Of a DNA stretch of 58,392 nt, positions 47,920 through 57,161 are shown piece after piece. How positions within the stretch are numbered: the stretch's first letter is position 1; every line of letters starts with the position of its first letter. The notes beneath the pieces were generated by a model. It worked only from the letters and a program-made list of their open reading frames with translations. It searched no databases and was not told the DNA's origin. Both the position numbers and the translations under genes were made by a program. The DNA lies in assembly GCA_022563505.1 (NCBI GenBank), contig JADFNG010000008.1:1-58392 (forward strand). Reading direction: 5' to 3'. This DNA is from Pseudomonadota bacterium. GTDB lineage: Bacteria; Pseudomonadota; Gammaproteobacteria; Steroidobacterales; Woeseiaceae.

Positions 47920-48818
47920 TGTGAGGTGCGAATTGCTACTTAGGCGGCTATTGGCAGCTGGTAAAGGCCACGGCAGAATGATTTCCAGCGATAGTTGTTC
48001 AGGCGAGCTGTGCTCTGACCCGCTATGCCAAGGCTAGAGTTTGGCGTTGTGCCGTCCAGCCCTTGGTGCGGGTGCTCCCTTGTGAATGGCGAATCCAATG
48101 ATTCGTCTGGTGCACTGATCAATGACGACCATCACCCAGTGTGTTTTTAGGATCAACGATTCACAGCGAAACAGATCCACACTCCACAAACTGTCTTTAC
48201 TGTGGCCGAGGCATGTTAGCCAGGACGGACCACCCGAGCCAGGATCGGGTCGGTAGTACTTGGTCAGCACTCGCCGCACGGTGTCCTTATTGACCGGGAT
48301 GCCGAAACTCAAGGAAATCTGATCGGCGATCCGCTGGTGTCCAAAGCGGGGATTCCTCTTCTTCATTGCCACGATGGCTGCAACTAGTTCCCGAGATGGC
48401 CCTTTGGGCCCCGGCCTGCCACGCCTGCTGGGTGAAAACAGCTCTCGGTACTTGCACTTCACCAGTGCTCGATGAAAGCTCAGAATCGTCGCGGGTTTCA
48501 GAACGATGGCTGAGCGAAGTAGGCGAGCGGGGTGGATCATACCGGCGCACAGACCAGCGACGATTCGGTCAACCGGCCGCAAATCGGGTGCCCGCTGTCG
48601 AGGGCGGTTGAGGATCAAGAGTTGGTGCTTTAGGAGTAACGACTCGGCAACGACGGAACGGGCACCGCCTGGACGCAATAAACGAATGACAGACACGATA
48701 AGATGGAAAAGCAACAGAAAGAGATCCTGAATAGCCATACCGGCTTAGGCAATGTGAATGCCACAATAGTGTCGACACCACAGCGTTTCAGGTTACGAAT
48801 AGGAATTCGCACCCCACA
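47920..48818 (-). mobile_element. DDE insertion sequence, internally deleted copy
   Basis: An 899-base IS copy. Its ends match those of the intact copy at 50825-52021: TGTGAGGTGCGAATT at 47920-47934 and the inverted AATTCGCACCCCACA at 48804-48818. The complete copy is about 1197 bases, so some 300 bases are lost from the transposase gene. It lies in inverted orientation to the intact copy, and a restriction-modification pair sits between them. No target duplication is evident. Confidence 0.8.
47940..48738 (-). pseudogene. Transposase (rve/DDE integrase type), internal deletion
   Basis: The N-terminal 220 codons (MAIQDLFLLLFHLIVSVIRL..) match the intact transposase at 50910-52001 closely, including SKDSLWSVDLFRCESL with the first catalytic Asp. 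At about 48085 the sequence jumps, out of frame, to EHPHQGLDGTTPNSSLGIAG..LYQLPIAA, equal to the C-terminal 45 residues of the intact copy. The second Asp and the Glu of the DDE triad are gone, so it cannot catalyse transposition. Confidence 0.85.
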
Positions 48819-48990: not shown

Positions 48991-49596
48991 ATGGCAGGGA
49001 TCAAGAAAAATAAAGTCGCTGATAAGTGCTTCAATCCGAAACTAAAGTTGCCCTATCAGCTGCGAAAAAGCGATTTTCGGGCAGCAATGCAAGATGTGTA
49101 TGACTTTTTTTATGACGTGAATTCTCACCTGACGTCCAAGGGGCTGCAACGTCTGGACGACATGTTAAGGCCGGCAATCATGTCAGGTGTATTGTCAGAC
49201 ATGCTGAACGCAAGCCTTGCGACCCACGCACGCGTTCTGGTTGAAAACAATTATTTCAACGGCCATCCGGACCTAATCGTGCAAGGGATTTATCCAGAAA
49301 ATTCGGCAAAATCTGGCGTCAAAGGAGTTGAAATAAAAACAACGCGGAAAAAAGGTGGTGCCGTAGATACGCATGGTGCGAGAAATCAATGGCTTTGTGT
49401 TTTCGTGTACAAAGTCGACACGGAAACCGAGCCAGCCATCGACAGGAGACCGATGTCATTCACAGAGGTCTATCTTGGCAAGGTGACGATTAACGATTTT
49501 AGAAAAAATTCTCGCGGCGAACTAGGAACCCGTACAGCTACACTGCACAAAGATGGAATTGCAAAACTCAGACAGAGTTGGGTGTATAAGGCCTAG
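48991..49596 (+). CDS. PD-(D/E)xK restriction endonuclease-like protein
   Basis: A 201-residue protein read as the nuclease of a type II restriction-modification pair. The nuclease core is visible: Pro93-Asp94 in GHPDLIVQG and, 19 residues later, Glu114-Ile-Lys116 in GVEIKTTRK, a PD-(D/E)xK site. The N-terminal 75 residues are helical (LTSKGLQRLDDMLRPAIMSG). ATG 48991 follows AAGGCGG. It is convergent with the methyltransferase gene, and the two 3' ends overlap by 29 bases. I do not recognise the specificity. Lower GC content than the core genes suggests horizontal origin. Confidence 0.75.
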   Translation: MAGIKKNKVADKCFNPKLKLPYQLRKSDFRAAMQDVYDFFYDVNSHLTSKGLQRLDDMLRPAIMSGVLSDMLNASLATHARVLVENNYFNGHPDLIVQGIYPENSAKSGVKGVEIKTTRKKGGAVDTHGARNQWLCVFVYKVDTETEPAIDRRPMSFTEVYLGKVTINDFRKNSRGELGTRTATLHKDGIAKLRQSWVYKA

Positions 49597-50740
49597 CAGT
49601 TCCATTGCCAGAATACTCTGTAAGTCTAGGGATAGCATTTACCGCGATCTGATAGTAGTGGGAATCTTTCTCTACACCGACGCTACGTGATCCAATAGCG
49701 TTACAGGCAGCCAAAGTCGAACCGGCTCCAGCGAATGGATCGAGGATGATACCTTTTCCAAGCGGGAGTGCGGCGCGGACAAGCTGACGCAAGAATAGCT
49801 GCGGTTTAAGACTGGGGTGAGCGGCCAACTTACGTTCACTCTTCCTAGTAGGGGAAGACTGGATAACGTCACCGAACGGCTTATCTTTTGCAGGTCGTCT
49901 GAATCCACCCGTTTTCCATTTTCTCAAATTATCTTGAACTCGACCTTCGATAGGTTTTCGATAAACTAACCAAGGCTCCCACATTGACCGCGGCATCACG
50001 CTTACGTCGCTAAATTCCTCGTGGGCAGATTTTGGTCTATCTCCGCCACGCATAGTCATCGTTAGTCGGATAATTTCGCCACGCCGTTCTAGCCCGGCTT
50101 CCGATAGCGCATTCGAAACTAGATGAGATACCAACGGGTTTGACGCAACGATCACGTTTGCGCCCGGAACGAGGCACGGAATCAGCAGTCTCCCCCATCC
50201 CCTAAAAAAAATACTTAATTCTTGAAGTTGATCCTTCGTCAGCGTCGTGAAGCGTGGTAAAGGAGATCGACGGTGGCCGTCAAATGATGGAGGAATTCTC
50301 CATACTCCACCGTTACCATTTCTCAATTTAGTTTGCTGATCTTCTGCATATTCATGAAGTCCGTAAGGTGGGTCAGTCACGACGGCATGTATTGAGTTCT
50401 TGCGTTGAGACTGAAGCCAAGAAAAGCAGTCAGTGTGGTGCAACGTCGACTTTTGAAACCGGAAGGTTTCGTGCGCTTGTTCATCATCCAAGGCGGTAAG
50501 CTTTTGTTGCAGAGCACTTTGAGATCCACCTCGAACCTTGTATATTCCTCGGGCCTCTCTGACAAACAGTTTCGGAGTATTCAATCTCAAGTATGACCGG
50601 ATGGACGACTGGGGAGTAACTCCAATGATTTGTTCCACCGCGTCCTTGATGGTGGGCATTGACATTGGCGTTGTTGATTGAGCAAGAACCTGAAGGATTG
50701 CATCCCGGACACGGCCTGGGGGATTTTTTTGAATGCTCAT
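49568..50740 (-). CDS. DNA methyltransferase (DPPY, beta-type) with N-terminal winged helix
   Basis: A 390-residue DNA amino-methyltransferase (N6-adenine or N4-cytosine). Motif IV DPPYGL (123-128) precedes motif I DPFAGAGST (334-342) and HPSLKPQLF, the beta-class order. Residues about 8-70 form a helix-turn-helix/winged helix resembling HARE-HTH (VRDAILQVLAQ..MPTIKDAVEQIIGVTPQSSIRSYL). The segment between motifs is a target-recognition region. The nuclease gene is its convergent partner. A 22-bp perfect palindrome ends 11 bases upstream of the start, where a repressor or the enzyme itself could act. Confidence 0.88.
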   Translation of the reverse strand: MSIQKNPPGRVRDAILQVLAQSTTPMSMPTIKDAVEQIIGVTPQSSIRSYLRLNTPKLFVREARGIYKVRGGSQSALQQKLTALDDEQAHETFRFQKSTLHHTDCFSWLQSQRKNSIHAVVTDPPYGLHEYAEDQQTKLRNGNGGVWRIPPSFDGHRRSPLPRFTTLTKDQLQELSIFFRGWGRLLIPCLVPGANVIVASNPLVSHLVSNALSEAGLERRGEIIRLTMTMRGGDRPKSAHEEFSDVSVMPRSMWEPWLVYRKPIEGRVQDNLRKWKTGGFRRPAKDKPFGDVIQSSPTRKSERKLAAHPSLKPQLFLRQLVRAALPLGKGIILDPFAGAGSTLAACNAIGSRSVGVEKDSHYYQIAVNAIPRLTEYSGNGTARPYTPNSV

Positions 50741-50750
50741 AGAAAGCCAT

Positions 50751-50772
50751 CTTAGACGTCTAGACGTCTAAG
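50751..50772. promoter_or_regulatory. 22-bp perfect palindrome upstream of the methyltransferase
   Basis: CTTAGACGTCT at 50751-50761 is followed by its exact reverse complement AGACGTCTAAG (50762-50772). It contains two GACGTC hexamers flanking a central TCTAGA. It starts 11 bases upstream of the methyltransferase ATG. Such sites serve as operators for autoregulating methyltransferases or controller proteins in restriction systems; no separate controller gene is seen, so the methyltransferase winged helix or the methylation state are candidate regulators. Confidence 0.7.
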
Positions 50773-50824
50773 GTCAATCGTTTATTTCCAGACTGCGTCA
50801 TCTTTGATTTGTCGATGCTCCACG

Positions 50825-52021
50825 TGTGGGGTGCGAATTCCTATTCATCGCATAAATCCGAGAGATTTCCAATTCTTGTCATGCGCGCCGATTCGGTTAC
50901 GATGATTCAGTGATGCGTGATCTCGCCATAATTTTCATCCACCTTCTCGTAACAATCGCCCGCGTGCTTGGACCTGGTGGTGCTCGGTCCGTGGTCGCCG
51001 AATCGCTCCTCGTCAAACATCAGCTTCTGATCGTCAATCGCTCCAGAGCCCGGGCGCCGGTCCTTCGACCGACAGACCGAGTCATTGTTGGGCTTTGCGC
51101 AATCGTCATGCGCCCTGCTCGCCTGTTACGGTCAGCCATTGTCCTGAAGCCCGCCACGATTCTCAACTTCCATCGTGCAATGGTGAAACGTCAATACAGC
51201 TTGCTGTTCACGCCGAAAACCCGCGGCAAGCCGGGCCCTACAGGACCTGCTCCGGAGCTGATTTCAGCAATCGTCGAGATGAAACGCAGAAACCCGAACT
51301 TCGGTTATCAGCGCATTGCCGACCAAATCGCCTTAGTCTTCGATGTCGAAATTGATAAGGATGTGGTACGGCGCGTGTTAGCCAGACATTATCGACCGCG
51401 GCCTGGATCTAATGGTCCGTCCTGGCTCACGTTCCTCGGCCACAGTAAAGACAGCTTGTGGAGTGTTGACTTCTTTCGATGTGAATCGTTGATCCTCAAG
51501 TCTCACTGGGTGATGGTTGTTATGGATCAATTTAGCCGCCGAATTGTTGGTTTTGCTTCCCATGCTGGGCCGCTCGACGGTCCATCGGTCTGCCGAATGT
51601 TCAATCGCATCGTCAGTGGGTCCGGAGCGCCCCAATACCTGAGCTCCGATAATGATCCTCTGTTTCTGTTTCACCGATGGCGCGCCAATCTACGAATACT
51701 CGATGTGGCAGAGGTAAAAACTGTGCCATACGTGCCATTATCTCACCCATTTGTCGAAAGACTGATTGGCACAGTTCGTCGAGAATATCTCGATCAGGTT
51801 CCTTTCTGGAGTGCTCGTGATCTGGAGAGAAAATTGATGTCATTTCAGGACTATTACAACAAGGACCGTGTTCACCGAGGACTGGGCGGCGCTCCTCCCA
51901 ACGAACAAAGTGACAACGCTGATCGAAAGATCGCTCGCCTGGACGATTATCGCTGGGAAAAACGCTGCCGTAGTTTGTATCAACTCCCGGTCGCGGCTTG
52001 AATACTAATTCGCACCCAACA
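50825..52021 (+). mobile_element. DDE insertion sequence, intact copy
   Basis: About 1197 bases. Left terminal repeat 50825-50846 begins TGTGGGGTGCGAATT; right terminal repeat 52000-52021, read inverted, begins TGTTGGGTGCGAATT; 19 of 22 bases match. It contains one transposase gene. Its right end interrupts the start of an integrase gene (52022-52070). No target duplication is visible. It is related to the deleted inverted copy at 47920-48818. Confidence 0.85.
50910..52001 (+). CDS. IS transposase, DDE integrase-core (IS481/IS3-like)
   Basis: A 363-residue transposase. Conserved N-terminal helical part (GARSVVAESLLVKHQLLIVN) and HTH (NPNFGYQRIADQI), then an rve integrase core with first Asp in LWSVDFFRCES, second Asp in YLSSDNDPLF and Glu in HPFVERLIGTVRREYLDQ. 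All three catalytic residues are present and the frame is open, so it may be active. The family is not settled by eye; IS481-like and IS3-like integrases share this core. Confidence 0.88.
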   Translation: MMRDLAIIFIHLLVTIARVLGPGGARSVVAESLLVKHQLLIVNRSRARAPVLRPTDRVIVGLCAIVMRPARLLRSAIVLKPATILNFHRAMVKRQYSLLFTPKTRGKPGPTGPAPELISAIVEMKRRNPNFGYQRIADQIALVFDVEIDKDVVRRVLARHYRPRPGSNGPSWLTFLGHSKDSLWSVDFFRCESLILKSHWVMVVMDQFSRRIVGFASHAGPLDGPSVCRMFNRIVSGSGAPQYLSSDNDPLFLFHRWRANLRILDVAEVKTVPYVPLSHPFVERLIGTVRREYLDQVPFWSARDLERKLMSFQDYYNKDRVHRGLGGAPPNEQSDNADRKIARLDDYRWEKRCRSLYQLPVAA

Positions 52022-52070
52022 GGTTGCGAACCTGCATGTCCTCGGTCATACGTTTGCGTAACGGTGTCAT
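52022..52070 (-). pseudogene. Truncated tyrosine integrase start (IS91-type accessory integrase)
   Basis: From ATG 52070, with AAGGAG 8 bases upstream, the minus strand reads MTPLRKRMTEDMQVRNL and then runs into the end of the insertion sequence at 52021. This is the typical N-terminus of tyrosine integrases that travel with IS91-like elements. Only about 17 codons remain, so the gene was cut by the IS insertion or by a later deletion. Identification rests on this short conserved start. Confidence 0.6.
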
Positions 52071-52236
52071 GGGTAAGCTCCTTCGTTGGATGAAAGCGCT
52101 GCATAGGCAGCGGCTCCATCTTCTCAAACTTCTCAAAAGGGGCAACGGGACAGGGGGAAACGTCAAAAACGGATGACACCGGGGAAGTTGCGGGGCTCGT
52201 GCTTCTGACTACCGCGAAGCGGTTTAGTCCAACCGC
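52071..52236. other. Leftover sequence between IS and RIT element
   Basis: 166 bases upstream of the truncated integrase start, with no gene seen. A small GC hairpin (ACCGC GAA GCGGT near 52210) lies close to the RIT boundary. The sequence does not encode the missing C-terminal end of the IS66 TnpC in the reading direction expected for a simple insertion. Confidence 0.4.
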
Positions 52237-52266
52237 AATTATCCACGGTGGGTAATTATGGAAGGT
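52237..52266 (+). repeat. RIT left inverted repeat with recombinase core site
   Basis: The outer 21 bases form an imperfect palindrome: AATTATCCAC, G, GTGGGTAATT (one mismatch), like a tyrosine recombinase crossover site. The inner part ends TATGGAAGGT. A further partial inverted copy TTCCATAATT lies at 52336-52345, just upstream of the first recombinase gene. Confidence 0.85.
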
Positions 52267-52392
52267 TCGGGTCAGAGGGTTTCACAAAGCCATAGTTTTT
52301 CCAGTCCCGCACGCAGCAGCTGCCACTGATTTGCTTTCCATAATTTTCGGTGCTCTCTTTCTGACGTTCTACCGTCACGAAGGAGAGTCATC

Positions 52393-53655
52393 ATGTTTGA
52401 TCCTGCACGTTCAAGGCATACACAGATTGCCAGTGAGTGGTTAGCGAAGTCAGCGCTTGCCTGCTATGCGGATACCTACGTTCAATACCTGACCGAGCGC
52501 GGTTATGCCGCTGGGACGATCAAGTGTTATTTCGGCAGCATCGCCCATTTCGCGCATTGGCTGGCAGGACAAGAGGCCGGCCTTGCCGACATCGGAGAAG
52601 ATCTGATCGGTCGCTTCCTTGACCGGCACCTGTTGCATTGTCGTTGCGCGCCACGTTGCAGGCGGATGCGAACCGACGGCCGAGCCGCGCTTGGGCATTT
52701 GCTCAAGATGCTCAGAGCCAACGGGCAATGCGCGCCCCGGCATTCAACAGTGCCGGATGCGATAGCCGCAGAGCTTGAGCACTTCGACTGTTTTCTCAGC
52801 GACGTGCGCGGGTTGTCAACGGCCACCCGTTCCACTCGGCTGCGCTGTCTACGAGATTTTCTCATCGACCGTTTTGGGACCGGGCCGGTGCAACTGAGTT
52901 CGTTGGGTCCGGCCGATGTCATCTGCTTCATAGAGCATTACACATCAGGATGGGCACCAGGGTCGATCAAGCAAGCTGGCACTTCACTGCGAAGTTACTT
53001 CGCTTTCCGCGCCACTCAGGGAGAGCAGACCAAGGCGCTGGCGGCCGCCCTGCCTCGTGTCGCACAATGGCGGCTTGCACCATTACCGCAAGTGCTTTGT
53101 GCGCAGGAGATCACGCAGCTACTGAAGGCCTTCGATCGCAGCGCTGCGACCGGCCAACGCGACTATGCGATCGTCCGCTGCCTCCTCGACCTGGGCTTAC
53201 GCCGAACCGAAGTCGCCCGTCTGCGGCTGGAGGATGTGGATTGGCGCGCCGGAACCCTGCGCATCCATACCAAGGGCAAGCGCATCGATGTGCTGCCGTT
53301 GCCGCAAAAAACCGGTACTGCAATCACGGCGTATTTGCAGAATGGCCGCCCACAAACGACTCGCCGCGAGTTGTTCGTGCGCCACCGCCCACCGATCAAC
53401 GCACCGGCCAGTGCCGATATTGTACGCAATGCGGCTCGCAACGCGGCTAAACGCTGCGGGCTTGAGCATCGTATCCGAGGAACGCATGTCTTCCGTCACA
53501 CACTGGCCGCTCGACTGGTGCAAAGTGGCGCCGGTTTCAAACAGATCGCGGACATGCTGCGTCACCGCTGCCTGGATACAACGACCATCTACGCCAAGGT
53601 CGATCTGCAGGCGTTGTCGCGTGTTGCCTTGCCGTGGCCCGGGAGGCAGCCATGA
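52393..53655 (+). CDS. RIT recombinase A (tyrosine recombinase)
   Basis: A 420-residue tyrosine recombinase, first of the trio. The SAM-like core-binding domain (about 17-105 and 120-210) precedes the catalytic domain with Arg270 (LGLRRTE), Lys294, His365-x-x-Arg368 (HVFRHTLAAR), His391 and nucleophile Tyr400 (TTTIYAKVD). A Cys-rich segment HCRCAPRCRR near 82-91 is unusual and may bind metal. Start ATG 52393 has GGAG upstream. Overlaps the next gene by 4 bases. Confidence 0.9.
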   Translation: MFDPARSRHTQIASEWLAKSALACYADTYVQYLTERGYAAGTIKCYFGSIAHFAHWLAGQEAGLADIGEDLIGRFLDRHLLHCRCAPRCRRMRTDGRAALGHLLKMLRANGQCAPRHSTVPDAIAAELEHFDCFLSDVRGLSTATRSTRLRCLRDFLIDRFGTGPVQLSSLGPADVICFIEHYTSGWAPGSIKQAGTSLRSYFAFRATQGEQTKALAAALPRVAQWRLAPLPQVLCAQEITQLLKAFDRSAATGQRDYAIVRCLLDLGLRRTEVARLRLEDVDWRAGTLRIHTKGKRIDVLPLPQKTGTAITAYLQNGRPQTTRRELFVRHRPPINAPASADIVRNAARNAAKRCGLEHRIRGTHVFRHTLAARLVQSGAGFKQIADMLRHRCLDTTTIYAKVDLQALSRVALPWPGRQP

Positions 53656-54596
53656 ACGCACCTGAGACGATGGCCTCAAAGGTCGAGGCGTATCTGAGGC
53701 TGCGCCGGCAGGCAGGCTTCACTTTGAAGATTGAGGGCCAACAACTGGCCCGTTTTGCTTGCTTTGCAGATAACACCGATCATCAGGGGCCGTTGACACT
53801 CAAGCTGGCCACGCAGTGGGCCACTGCGTCACGTCAGTCAAAACGCCTCACCGCCGCACGGCGTATCGAGGTGTTGCGACCCTTTGCCCGTTACTGTCAA
53901 CAGTTTGAGCCAGACACCGAGATCCCGCCGCGGGGCCTCTTTGGGCGCGCTCATCGTCGCCTGACCCCGCATATTTTCATGGATGGCGAGATTCGTGCCC
54001 TCCTGGCGGCCTGCGCACAGCTGTGTCCACCGAGCGGCTTGCGGGGTGCTACTTGTGCCGCGATCTTCGGCCTCATCGCCGCAACGGGCTTGCGGATCTC
54101 AGAGGCCACGGGATTGAAGCGCCCGGACGTCGATCTCGAACGCGGCTTGCTGCACATCCAACACGCCAAGTTCGGCAAGTCACGCTGGGTGCCGATGCAC
54201 ACCACCACGACACACGCCTTACAACGATATGCACAACAACGTGACCGCGATCCCCTTACCGCCAACACCGCGGCGTTCTTTGTCTTCGACTATGGGCGAT
54301 GCGCTTCAAGCAGGAGTCTGCAGTACGCATTCCAGTTATTGAGAGATCAACTGAAGTGGCGCCCCCGCGGCGACCATGCGGCTCCCCGTATCCATGATCT
54401 GCGGCATTCATTTGTCTGCCATCGGCTTGAACGCTGGTCCGCGCAGGGCCTGGATGTCGATCGTCACATCCTCGCCTTGTCGACCTACATCGGTCACGCC
54501 AAAGTGACCGATACCTACTGGTACCTCACCGCGACTCCCGAGCTGCTGGCGATCGCGGCCAAGCGCTTTACTGACCCGTCGGGAGCGGTCTCATGA
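53652..54596 (+). CDS. RIT recombinase B (tyrosine recombinase)
   Basis: A 314-residue tyrosine recombinase. Catalytic residues: Arg148 (ATGLRISE), Lys173 (HAKFGKSRWV region), His248-x-x-Arg251 (HDLRHSF), His282 (IGHAKVTDT) and Tyr291. ATG 53652 overlaps the stop of recombinase A (ATGA), and is preferred over an in-frame ATG at 53634. Length is typical of the middle member of RIT trios. Probably acts together with A and C, as all three are translationally coupled. Confidence 0.9.
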   Translation: MNAPETMASKVEAYLRLRRQAGFTLKIEGQQLARFACFADNTDHQGPLTLKLATQWATASRQSKRLTAARRIEVLRPFARYCQQFEPDTEIPPRGLFGRAHRRLTPHIFMDGEIRALLAACAQLCPPSGLRGATCAAIFGLIAATGLRISEATGLKRPDVDLERGLLHIQHAKFGKSRWVPMHTTTTHALQRYAQQRDRDPLTANTAAFFVFDYGRCASSRSLQYAFQLLRDQLKWRPRGDHAAPRIHDLRHSFVCHRLERWSAQGLDVDRHILALSTYIGHAKVTDTYWYLTATPELLAIAAKRFTDPSGAVS

Positions 54597-55597
54597 GCGC
54601 CCCGGTGCCGTTGAGCTTTGCCCGCTTGTTGCAGCAGTTTTTCATGCAACGCCTGATGCAACAACAGCGGGCAAGCCCATGTACCGTGGCGGCCTATCGC
54701 GACAGTTTCCGCTTGCTGCTGGCCTTCGCCCATCGGCGACTGGGTAAACGACCCAGCGATATTGCGCTGGATGACCTGAACGCGTCATTTATTCTGGAGT
54801 TTCTCAACCATCTCGAGGTGGAACGTCACAACTGTGTCCGCAGTCGCAATGCCCGCTTCGCCGCGATCCGATCCTTCATGGAATACGTTGCTTTTCAGGA
54901 ACCCTCAGCACTCGCTCTGACACGGTCGGTATTGGCAATACCAATGAAACGCTTCGAGCAACCGCTGATCGGATTTCTCTCGCGTGAGCACGTCGAAGCG
55001 ATTCTTGCTGCGCCGGATCCAAACACATGGACCGGGCAACGCGATCGCGTGATGCTGGCCACGCTCTACAACACCGGCGCGCGGGTATCGGAGTTGATCG
55101 GCATGCGGGTAGTCGATCTCATTCTTAAACCCAGTGGGTCGGTTCTTATTCGGGGTAAAGGCCGCAAGCACAGGTCCGTTCCACTTTGGTCGGCAACCAC
55201 CGCGCAGCTCAAACGCTGGCTGCGAGAATACCCTCGGTCAGCTCAAGAACCCCTCTTCCCAGGCCGGTCCGGTGGCCCACTGACACGCATCGGGTTCACG
55301 GAACGACTGAAGCTCGCCGCCAGGAGGGCCGCGAGTCAATTTCCCGAACTGGGCAAACGACGAGTCTTTCCCCACCTGATTCGTCACTCAACTGCCATGC
55401 ATATGCTGCAAGCCGGTGTCGACATCACGGTCATCGCACTTTGGCTCGGGCACGAGAGCCCCGCGACCACGCATCGGTATGTCGAAGCGGATCTCGCGAT
55501 GAAAGAGCAGGCGCTAAAGGCGCTTCAGGCTCCCTCCCAGAGACCGCTCCGATACCGGCCAAAGGATCGCGTCCTGCAGTTCTTGCAGAGCTTGTAA
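54593..55597 (+). CDS. RIT recombinase C (tyrosine recombinase)
   Basis: A 334-residue tyrosine recombinase with a phage-integrase SAM-like N-domain (about 10-105) and catalytic Arg164 (NTGARVSE), Lys189 (RGKGRKHR), His261-x-x-Arg264 (HLIRHSTAMHML), His287 (LGHESPATT) and Tyr296 (HRYVEAD). It overlaps recombinase B by 4 bases. XerC/D-like sequence is the closest general class, but the trio arrangement marks it as a RIT gene. Confidence 0.9.
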   Translation: MSAPVPLSFARLLQQFFMQRLMQQQRASPCTVAAYRDSFRLLLAFAHRRLGKRPSDIALDDLNASFILEFLNHLEVERHNCVRSRNARFAAIRSFMEYVAFQEPSALALTRSVLAIPMKRFEQPLIGFLSREHVEAILAAPDPNTWTGQRDRVMLATLYNTGARVSELIGMRVVDLILKPSGSVLIRGKGRKHRSVPLWSATTAQLKRWLREYPRSAQEPLFPGRSGGPLTRIGFTERLKLAARRAASQFPELGKRRVFPHLIRHSTAMHMLQAGVDITVIALWLGHESPATTHRYVEADLAMKEQALKALQAPSQRPLRYRPKDRVLQFLQSL

Positions 55598-55718
55598 TTA
55601 TGCACAGCTTGTTACCGTGCTGAACCAGCACAAAGTGCGGCGGTCGATGCCGTTTCGCTCGTAAAATATGCGCATTGGCATCGACCCTCACGCCAACGGA
55701 TCTCCGTCAGCTGCGGTT
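55598..55718. other. Subterminal region of the RIT element
   Basis: 121 bases between the ritC stop and the right repeat, with no gene. It includes a GTAATTATG word at the ritC stop, also present in the terminal repeat, which could be a chance match. Confidence 0.3.
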
Positions 55719-57161
55719 ACCTTCCATAATTACCCACCGTGGATAATTTCTGCCAATCACAAAAGGTCGAATGGCATTCTCGGCTAAGTTGTTGTCAATC
55801 TCGAGGCGGCCATCGTCCAGGTAGCCAATCAGTTTGTCCCATTCATTGTGCAGGTAGTGAAGCGCTATTCCGGTAGCGCTCGTCGGCGGCACCTGGGGCA
55901 TTGCCTGATCCAGCCAAGTACGCATCTCATCAAGGATCGGCCGGGCATGCCGATCACGGTGCGCCTGCCGTTCCTCAGGTTCCAGTTTGCGTGCCTGCTT
56001 CTCCACCCGGTAGAGCTTGCGGATCAGATTAAGCCCGCGATGGGCCTTGCCATGCTTCTTGTTCTTGCCCTGCGCCTTGACCGCGTCACTGAACTTGCGT
56101 CTGGCATGCGCCATGCAACCCACGTGGATGAGATCATTTTCTGCCACGGCGGCGTTGTAACCGTCATAGCCGTCTGTTTGTAAATATCCCTTGAAGCCTT
56201 CCAGCAAGTGCTTGGCAACCTCGGCGCCACGCCCGGGATCGTAGTGAAACAGCACCACCGGACGATCCGGCGGACCGCCGCGTTGCAGCCACAGGTAGGA
56301 TTTCGATTGGGGCTTCCTGCCGGGCTCTTTAAGCACCTGCACCGTGGTCTCATCCATCTGCACGATGTCATAGCTTAAAAGCCGCTCGTGCAGCAGGTTG
56401 ATCAGCGGCTGGATCAGCTGGCCGGCCTGGATCATCCAGTTGGCCAGGGTTGCGCGCGGGAGTTCCACCCCAATACGCTGCAAAATCGTTTCCTGACGAT
56501 ACAGCGGCAGCGCATCCTGGTACTTGCAAACGGCAATGTGGGCCAGCAAGCCCGGTGACGCCATGCTTTTCGGAATCGGCTGTGCCGGTAACGGGGCGGT
56601 CCTGATGCATTGGCCACAGTCACAGGCGTATTTCTTGCGGATATGCCGCAGTACCTGGATCTTCGCCGGGATGATATCGAGCTGCTCCGAGATGACCTCG
56701 CCGATCTCGCTCAGCAACCGGCCGTCATGTTCGCAGCGGCGTGCCGACTCAGGCAGCTCGTGAATGATATCGATGCGTGGCAAGTGATCCGGTATTGGCT
56801 TCCTGCCACGCTTCTTGCGTTTGTGTGCGGCAATCGTGATCTCATCACCGCCGTCTGCCTCCGCATCGGCGGCCGCGTCACTATCGAACTCCGCCTCATC
56901 GAACAGACCGATCTGATCCGGCGACAGCTTTTCGCTGCTCGCCGCATAACGACGCGCCAAAGCGAGATTCAGTTGTTCAGTGAGGGTGAGAACCTGGAAC
57001 TTGTAACGCTGGTTCTCTGTCGTGAGTTGTTCGATCTTTTGATCAACCGCTTGCTTGTCGACTTGCAATTGTTCGTTGCGAACAAGTTGATCAACGACCA
57101 GAGATTTCAATGCATCAACGTCATCAGGCAGTTGATGCAGTGCAATTGGCATGCGTTGCAT
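55707..57161 (-). pseudogene. IS66 transposase TnpC, C-terminally truncated
   Basis: A 484-codon frame whose last dozen residues (after NAIRPFVIGRN) come from the RIT repeat and its flank. Normal parts: N-terminal coiled coil (LKSLVVDQLVRNEQLQ), Cys-rich zinc segment (KYACDCGQCI), and the DDE core with Asp in VQMDETTVQV, Asp in LQTDGYDGYN and Glu in NNLAENAIRP. All three catalytic residues survive, but the last 30-50 residues seen in other TnpC proteins (after FVIGR) are missing, so activity is doubtful. Confidence 0.85.
55719..55748 (-). repeat. RIT right inverted repeat
   Basis: Exact reverse complement of 52237-52266 over 30 bases; matching stops precisely at both ends (52236 versus 55749, and 52267 versus 55718). 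The outer end is fused in frame to the IS66 tnpC sequence. Confidence 0.9.

What the first reader, a model, noticed from the sequence alone, without database searches (positions are those of the whole stretch)
52237..55748. Complete RIT element with three intact recombinases and 30-bp perfect ends
The three recombinase genes overlap by ATGA, all have the full Arg-Lys-His-Arg-His-Tyr set, and the element ends are perfect over 30 bases. RIT elements are rarely studied and their mechanism is unresolved; this copy appears fully functional and recent.
Basis: partly seen in the sequence, partly recalled or inferred. Interest (0 to 1): 0.65.

Follow-up and report, generated by a model that had tools for sequence, protein, structure and literature searches.

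The report
RIT transposon with dif-like ends
This is a genuine three-recombinase jumping element (RIT) sitting inside another jumping gene; comparing it with about 90 relatives shows that such elements probably move as circles closed by a small 20-base palindrome, which this particular copy has lost, so it is less intact than it looks.

Summary
A 3.5-kb RIT element lies at 52237-55748, with ritA, ritB and ritC all open, both overlaps ATGA, full catalytic sets and 30/30 matching inverted ends. It is the only copy in its genome (an incomplete MAG). It interrupts IS66 tnpC at a codon where at least 18 other RIT copies sit. "Fully functional and recent" is not supported.

In about 90 related loci each end is two direct 10-bp half-sites (YTATSnnnRG, 17-bp period). 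A 20-bp palindrome of two such half-sites lies exactly 6 bp outside one end, left in 20 copies and right in 20. Half-palindrome, 6 bp and half-site together make a Xer/dif-like core. Removing RIT, palindrome and one 6-bp copy restores IS66 tnpC in 17 loci. A held-out set of 12 plasmid loci gave 8/8 complete copies with one palindrome. I infer a circular intermediate closed R-N6-palindrome-N6-L that can integrate at either core.

The window copy has no palindrome. Its left end abuts the terminus of an integrase + IS91-type element, which in four relatives sits between RIT end and palindrome. The IS66 3' part is gone. Enzymes look intact, but the copy probably cannot excise by the normal route.

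The parts
52237..55748 (+). RIT element as defined by the 30-bp perfect inverted arms
52393..53655 (+). ritA: tyrosine recombinase with two N-terminal core-binding helical bundles and a Xer-type catalytic domain
   Evidence: SAM-like at 27-78, XerC/D model at 131-411; helices 23-109 and 122-208 precede the catalytic domain
53652..54596 (+). ritB: tyrosine recombinase (ATG start overlapping the ritA stop)
54593..55597 (+). ritC: tyrosine recombinase with C-terminal extension after the catalytic Tyr
52239..52265 (+). left end: half-site unit1 TTATCCACGG (52239-52248), N7, unit2 TTATGGAAGG (52256-52265)
55720..55746 (-). right end, same two half-sites read inward on the - strand
52233..52238 (.). 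6-bp overlap at the left end (CCGCAA), joined to the integrase/IS91-type terminus
55747..55752 (.). 6-bp overlap at the right end (CAGAAA on the - strand), joined to IS66 tnpC
55753..57161 (-). target: IS66 tnpC, cut after ...AENAIRPFVIGR; its last ~70 residues are missing from the assembled genome
57188..57921 (-). IS66 tnpB and tnpA, upstream genes of the interrupted IS66
52209..52232 (.). terminus CTACCGCGAAGCGGTTTAGTCCAA of an integrase + IS91-family-transposase element, abutting the left overlap
52025..52070 (-). 5' remnant of that element's integrase (MTPLRKRMTEDMQVR...), cut by the insertion sequence to its left
50822..52024 (+). IS481/IS3-like insertion sequence (26-bp ends, 85% complementary); material beyond it no longer belongs to the RIT target

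Best explanation
The window holds a RIT element with intact recombinase genes. It works as a site-specific transposon of the Xer/dif type rather than as a simple inverted-repeat transposon. In the family the mobile unit is the RIT body plus one 20-bp palindrome. The palindrome is two head-to-head recombinase half-sites. Palindrome half, 6-bp overlap and the first half-site of a RIT end make a dif-like core (CATAA-N6-TTATG). Inferred cycle: recombination between [target-left|N6|RIT end] and [palindrome|N6|target-right], which are in direct orientation, releases a circle R-N6-palindrome-N6-L and an empty target. The near-symmetric circle junction has two equivalent cores, so it can integrate by either one. 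This leaves the palindrome beside L or beside R and the RIT in either orientation, with 6 bp of donor sequence carried to the palindrome side. Preferred targets in this clade are conserved codons of IS66 tnpC. In the window the RIT first entered IS66 tnpC with its R end next to the tnpC 5' part. An integrase + IS91-type element then entered the L/palindrome core. An IS481-like insertion with a deletion later removed most of that element, the palindrome and the IS66 3' end. Shown by sequence: gene content, end architecture, palindrome at 6 bp, 6-bp repeats, restored IS66 frames, identical copies with the palindrome on opposite sides, and the integrase/IS91 position in relatives. Inferred: the circle itself, which recombinase acts where, and the order of events in the window.
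For: Ends and palindrome: in 126 ends a 20-mer with >=7/10 palindromic pairs lies at 6 bp in 58, and at any other spacing from 0 to 15 in 0-3. Of loci with both flanks readable, 20 have it left, 20 right, 3 both, 6 neither (one further right-side copy and one both-side copy were borderline). Overlap: the 6 bp on the two sides of the palindrome agree 5.67/6 (shuffled 2.31, 0 of 2000 shuffles); non-palindrome end versus outer 6 bp agree 5.05/6 (shuffled 2.25). Where target and donor overlaps differ (for example L053, L065, L066, L068, L083, L097, L103, L118), the outer copy equals the donor's. Empty sites: joined flanks align contiguously to intact IS66 TnpC in 17 loci, 12 at residues 476-478 and 5 at 463-466 in the opposite orientation. 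Held-out plasmids: 8/8 complete copies have exactly one palindrome, 4 L and 4 R, and 6 restored IS66 sites at residue 476. Mobility: copies 100% identical over 3.2-3.5 kb in one genome with the palindrome on opposite sides (L055/L056/L068, L079/L082, L094/L095, L103/L105). Asymmetric palindromes share one orientation in the circle frame in 4/4 informative cases (L079/L082, L076, L091, L093). Displacement: an IS91 transposase was found in the flanks only in L039, L089, L104 and L146, and there the element lies between a RIT end and the palindrome; the window left flank has the same terminus and integrase start.
Against: No circle, excision or transposition was observed; all of this is comparative sequence. 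Some complete copies without a palindrome (L077, L100) are unexplained. The window host is a MAG, so its left junction could be an assembly chimera through a repeated element. Only four cases bear on palindrome orientation. Many loci share recent ancestry or genomes, so the counts are not fully independent.
Confidence: 0.75

Rival explanations
1. The palindrome is not part of the element; RIT elements simply prefer to insert next to existing palindromes in the target.
For: Palindromes are often involved in target choice; Van Houdt et al. saw a palindrome overlapping the inverted repeats (PMC3414803). Three copies have palindromes on both sides.
Against: Only removal of RIT + palindrome + one 6-bp copy gives a continuous IS66 TnpC, in 17 + 6 loci. 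Palindrome sequence follows the element (identical among copies at different targets) and its half-sites resemble the element's own unit2 more than shuffled ones (1.67 vs 1.02 of 3, max 1.37).
Confidence: 0.07
2. The two inverted ends recombine with each other, so the element flips in place; this, not a circular intermediate, explains the palindrome appearing at either side.
For: Ends are inverted repeats with nearly identical cores, the classical substrate for inversion.
Against: Flipping would reverse an asymmetric palindrome relative to the element; 4/4 informative cases show it unreversed. It does not explain identical copies at different targets.
Confidence: 0.1
3. The window copy is a hybrid left by recombination between two RIT copies at different targets, which also loses the palindromes; no integrase/IS91 insertion is needed.
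For: Both window flanks look like the non-palindrome side of targets, and the reciprocal product (palindromes at both ends) exists in L076, L091, L093.
Against: The left terminus is the same integrase/IS91 end that abuts a RIT end or the palindrome in L039, L089, L104, with the integrase start at a similar distance. Only one RIT copy is seen in the genome.
Confidence: 0.15
4. The window left junction is an assembly chimera and the true copy is an ordinary IS66::RIT with palindrome.
For: The genome is a fragmented MAG (135 contigs, 82.5% complete, 3.8% contaminated).
Against: The join lies exactly at the RIT overlap and at an integrase/IS91 terminus, as in isolates and plasmids (L039, L104).
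Confidence: 0.1

Closest known systems
RIT elements (Recombinase in Trio; Cupriavidus metallidurans CH34 ritABC; Van Houdt et al. 2012)
   Same: Three overlapping tyrosine-recombinase genes in order A-B-C, ~3.5 kb, ~28-30 bp inverted ends, an associated palindrome; CH34 ritA1B1C1 also interrupts an IS66 transposase gene (PMC2864759, PMC3414803).
   Different: Here the ends are resolved into half-sites, the palindrome into a 6-bp-spaced dif-like partner site, and the target into one IS66 codon; the window copy lacks the palindrome. Ricker et al. 2013, the main RIT survey, could not be read here and may describe part of this.
Caballeronia catudaia, C. jiangsuensis and Paraburkholderia guartelaensis RIT copies (L042, L041, L043)
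   Same: Closest relatives found: RitC 74%, RitA 58-62% identical; R or L end in IS66 tnpC at the same codon.
   Different: L042 and L043 carry a palindrome (TTAG-type, borderline in L042) outside the other end; the window copy does not.
XerCD/dif recombination
   Same: Recombinases are Xer-like; core CATAA-N6-TTATG matches the dif layout (own knowledge of dif).
   Different: Three recombinases, a transferable palindrome, mobile rather than resident sites.
SE, GInt and Tn554-type elements
   Same: Several tyrosine recombinases and, in SE and Tn554, a 6-bp sequence carried from the donor to one side of the new site (PMC10214605).
   Different: No inverted ends or palindrome of this kind in the passages read; the fourth SE/GInt protein is absent here.

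Membership tests
RIT element | three adjacent tyrosine-recombinase genes, same strand, short overlaps | tested here: met
RIT element | complete catalytic residues in all three | tested here: met
RIT element | RitA with two sequential core-binding domains (PMC8138268) | tested here: met
   (Xer models align from residue 131, SAM-like domain at 27-78) and AlphaFold model, (mean pLDDT 84, pTM 0.53)
RIT element | RitC with extra C-terminal helix (PMC8138268) | tested here: inconclusive
   RitC has a conserved ~38-residue tail after Tyr296; its structure was not predicted
RIT element | ~3.5 kb length and 28-30 bp inverted ends | tested here: met
   (3512 bp, 30/30)
RIT element | palindrome flanking the element | tested here: not met
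   None at either end of this copy; found in nearly all complete relatives. PMC3414803 mentions a palindrome but does not make it a defining feature; its absence here lowers 'intact copy', not 'RIT'.
RIT element | multiple or mobile copies | tested here: inconclusive
   one copy in an 82.5% complete MAG; relatives have identical copies at different sites
Xer/dif-type site-specific recombination | core of two inverted half-sites around a 6-8 bp overlap | tested here: met
   half-palindrome-N6-unit1 in relatives; the window copy keeps only the unit1 side
Xer/dif-type site-specific recombination | cleavage at the overlap borders and conservative exchange | not testable with these tools
   6-bp repeats agree with it; no biochemistry

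The most novel reading that the evidence does not exclude
RIT elements are a distinct class of site-specific transposon. Their circular intermediate closes through a transferable, element-specific palindrome that provides two equivalent dif-like cores, so one circle can insert in both orientations with a 6-bp coupling sequence. The terminal inverted repeats are then not the recombining pair, and a second, integrase + IS91-type element preys on the same core.
Probability: 0.65. Interest if true: 0.75.

Novelty: new member of a known kind. Interest (0 to 1): 0.6.

Why it matters
Van Houdt et al. (PMC3414803) wrote that RIT ends do not fit known tyrosine-recombinase sites and that it is hard to see how three recombinases are used; PMC10214605 notes no RIT transposition reproduced in the laboratory and their movement as not tested. 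The comparison made here names the likely att sites base by base, the overlap, the joint sequence expected in the circle and the target codon, so the question becomes one PCR and one plasmid assay. It also shows that perfect inverted ends and open genes are not enough to call a RIT copy functional.

Tried and rejected
DNA search for near relatives in plasmids: none. Search for the end sequence in 396 genomes of the order: only the window itself. Search for the missing IS66 3' end elsewhere in the genome: none. The perfect palindrome at 50752-50771 was tested as the lost RIT palindrome and rejected: its 6-bp neighbours do not match, IS66 sequence does not follow, and the same tandem AGACGTCT repeat is conserved upstream of the same methyltransferase gene in two other genomes. 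A MetJ operator reading of it was dropped because no MetJ was found in the genome. Hairpin formation by the end itself is not unusual (z -0.9). The pHG1 RIT array gave no match to this end pattern. Viral contigs gave 13 relatives, not followed further. Papers that describe RIT ends in detail (Ricker 2013; Nielsen 2017) are not held.

Full report
Observation. The element is present as described. Arms 52237-52266 and 55719-55748 are 30/30 complementary. ritA, ritB and ritC are open, on one strand, with ATGA at both junctions. All three are Phage_integrase proteins, nearest by profile to XerC/XerD, and keep the catalytic set when aligned with XerD and an archaeal Xer. RitA has two core-binding bundles before the catalytic domain, the RitA signature named in PMC8138268. 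RitC keeps a conserved tail after its Tyr. The genome holds one copy.

Relatives. An alignment of ten RitC proteins was used to fetch 80 loci from 84,980 genomes; a few plasmid loci were added. The closest are Caballeronia and Paraburkholderia copies (RitC 74%).

Anatomy of the ends. Read from outside inwards, each end is unit1-N7-unit2, both units YTATSnnnRG in the same direction (profile of 95 distinct ends). A 20-bp palindrome, itself two head-to-head units, lies exactly 6 bp outside unit1 in 58 of 126 ends and at other spacings almost never. Counting loci with both flanks readable, it is left in 20, right in 20, on both sides in 3 and absent in 6, with two borderline cases. Half-palindrome, 6 bp and unit1 form a dif-like core, CATAA-N6-TTATG.

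The 6 bp. In one-palindrome copies three 6-bp words can be read: at the non-palindrome end, between the other end and the palindrome, and outside the palindrome. The last two agree 5.67/6 on average, and first and last agree 5.05/6; shuffled pairs give about 2.3. Where the target word differs from the element's word, the word outside the palindrome is usually the element's. This resembles the 6-bp transfer described for SE and Tn554 elements (PMC10214605).

Empty sites. An intact relative of the window's IS66 was found (L123, tnpC 546 aa). Joining the flanks of RIT copies without RIT, palindrome and one 6-bp word gives continuous tnpC alignments in 17 loci: 12 at residues 476-478 (GR-K/N-NW) and 5 at 463-466 in the opposite orientation. 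The window copy sits at the first site (...AENAIRPFVIGR). Insertion of a RIT in an IS66 transposase gene was already noted for CH34 (PMC2864759).

Held-out test. With the rule fixed, 12 further plasmid loci were fetched. Of 19 clear ends, 10 have the palindrome at 6 bp. All 8 complete copies have exactly one, 4 left and 4 right. Six give restored IS66 sites at residue 476.

Mobility and circle. Copies 100% identical over 3.2-3.5 kb occur at different sites in one genome with the palindrome on opposite sides. Where the palindrome is asymmetric, its orientation fits a single joint R-palindrome-L in 4 of 4 cases. This favours a circle opened at either side over flipping in place, but four cases are few.

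The window copy. There is no palindrome at either end, and none elsewhere in the window that fits. The right flank is IS66 tnpC; its 3' part is absent from the assembled genome. The left flank, CTACCGCGAAGCGGTTTAGTCCAA, is the terminus of an integrase + IS91-transposase element. In L039, L089 and L104 that element lies exactly between a RIT end and the palindrome, and L146 fits the same order. Among the scanned loci an IS91 transposase occurs only in these four. In the window only its terminus and 15 codons of the integrase remain; an IS481-like element (50822-52024) and a methyltransferase gene follow. The simplest history is IS66, then RIT, then integrase/IS91 into the L/palindrome core, then the IS481-like element with a deletion. 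Both remaining cores are target-arm|N6|unit1 in inverted orientation, so the model predicts at most inversion, not excision, for this copy.

Limits. The circle, the roles of the three proteins and the order of events are inferred. The main RIT survey (Ricker 2013) was not available, so the palindrome architecture may be partly known; Van Houdt et al. already mention an overlapping palindrome. Loci are related, so counts overstate independence.

Noticed in passing
window 50752-50771: Perfect palindrome TTAGACGTCTAGACGTCTAA (tandem AGACGTCT boxes) just upstream of an N6/N4 DNA methyltransferase gene (49568-50740, -). Two or three such boxes are conserved upstream of the same gene in two other genomes of the order (L150, L151/L153). 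No MetJ in the genome, so perhaps an operator of the methyltransferase or its own methylation site.
   Followed up: partly
L039, L089, L104, L146; window 52025-52232: An element of tyrosine integrase + IS91-family transposase inserts precisely at the 6-bp overlap between a RIT end and its palindrome, in either orientation; in L104 its integrase is itself interrupted by an IS66.
   Followed up: partly
L051, L052, L055, L056, L058: A RIT subgroup uses a second, nearby IS66 tnpC site (residues 463-466) in the opposite orientation.
   Followed up: partly
L071, L073, L172: Another RIT subgroup (N6 TCACGA/TCATGA) shares a different, non-IS66 target encoding a DPW(S/C)PA-like motif; gene not identified.
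   Followed up: no
L077, L100: Complete copies without a palindrome and without an integrase/IS91 element nearby; unexplained.
   Followed up: no
window 48034-48738 (-): Small HTH-type protein with weak HTH_32/HTH_21 match, perhaps another transposase fragment near the RIT.
   Followed up: no
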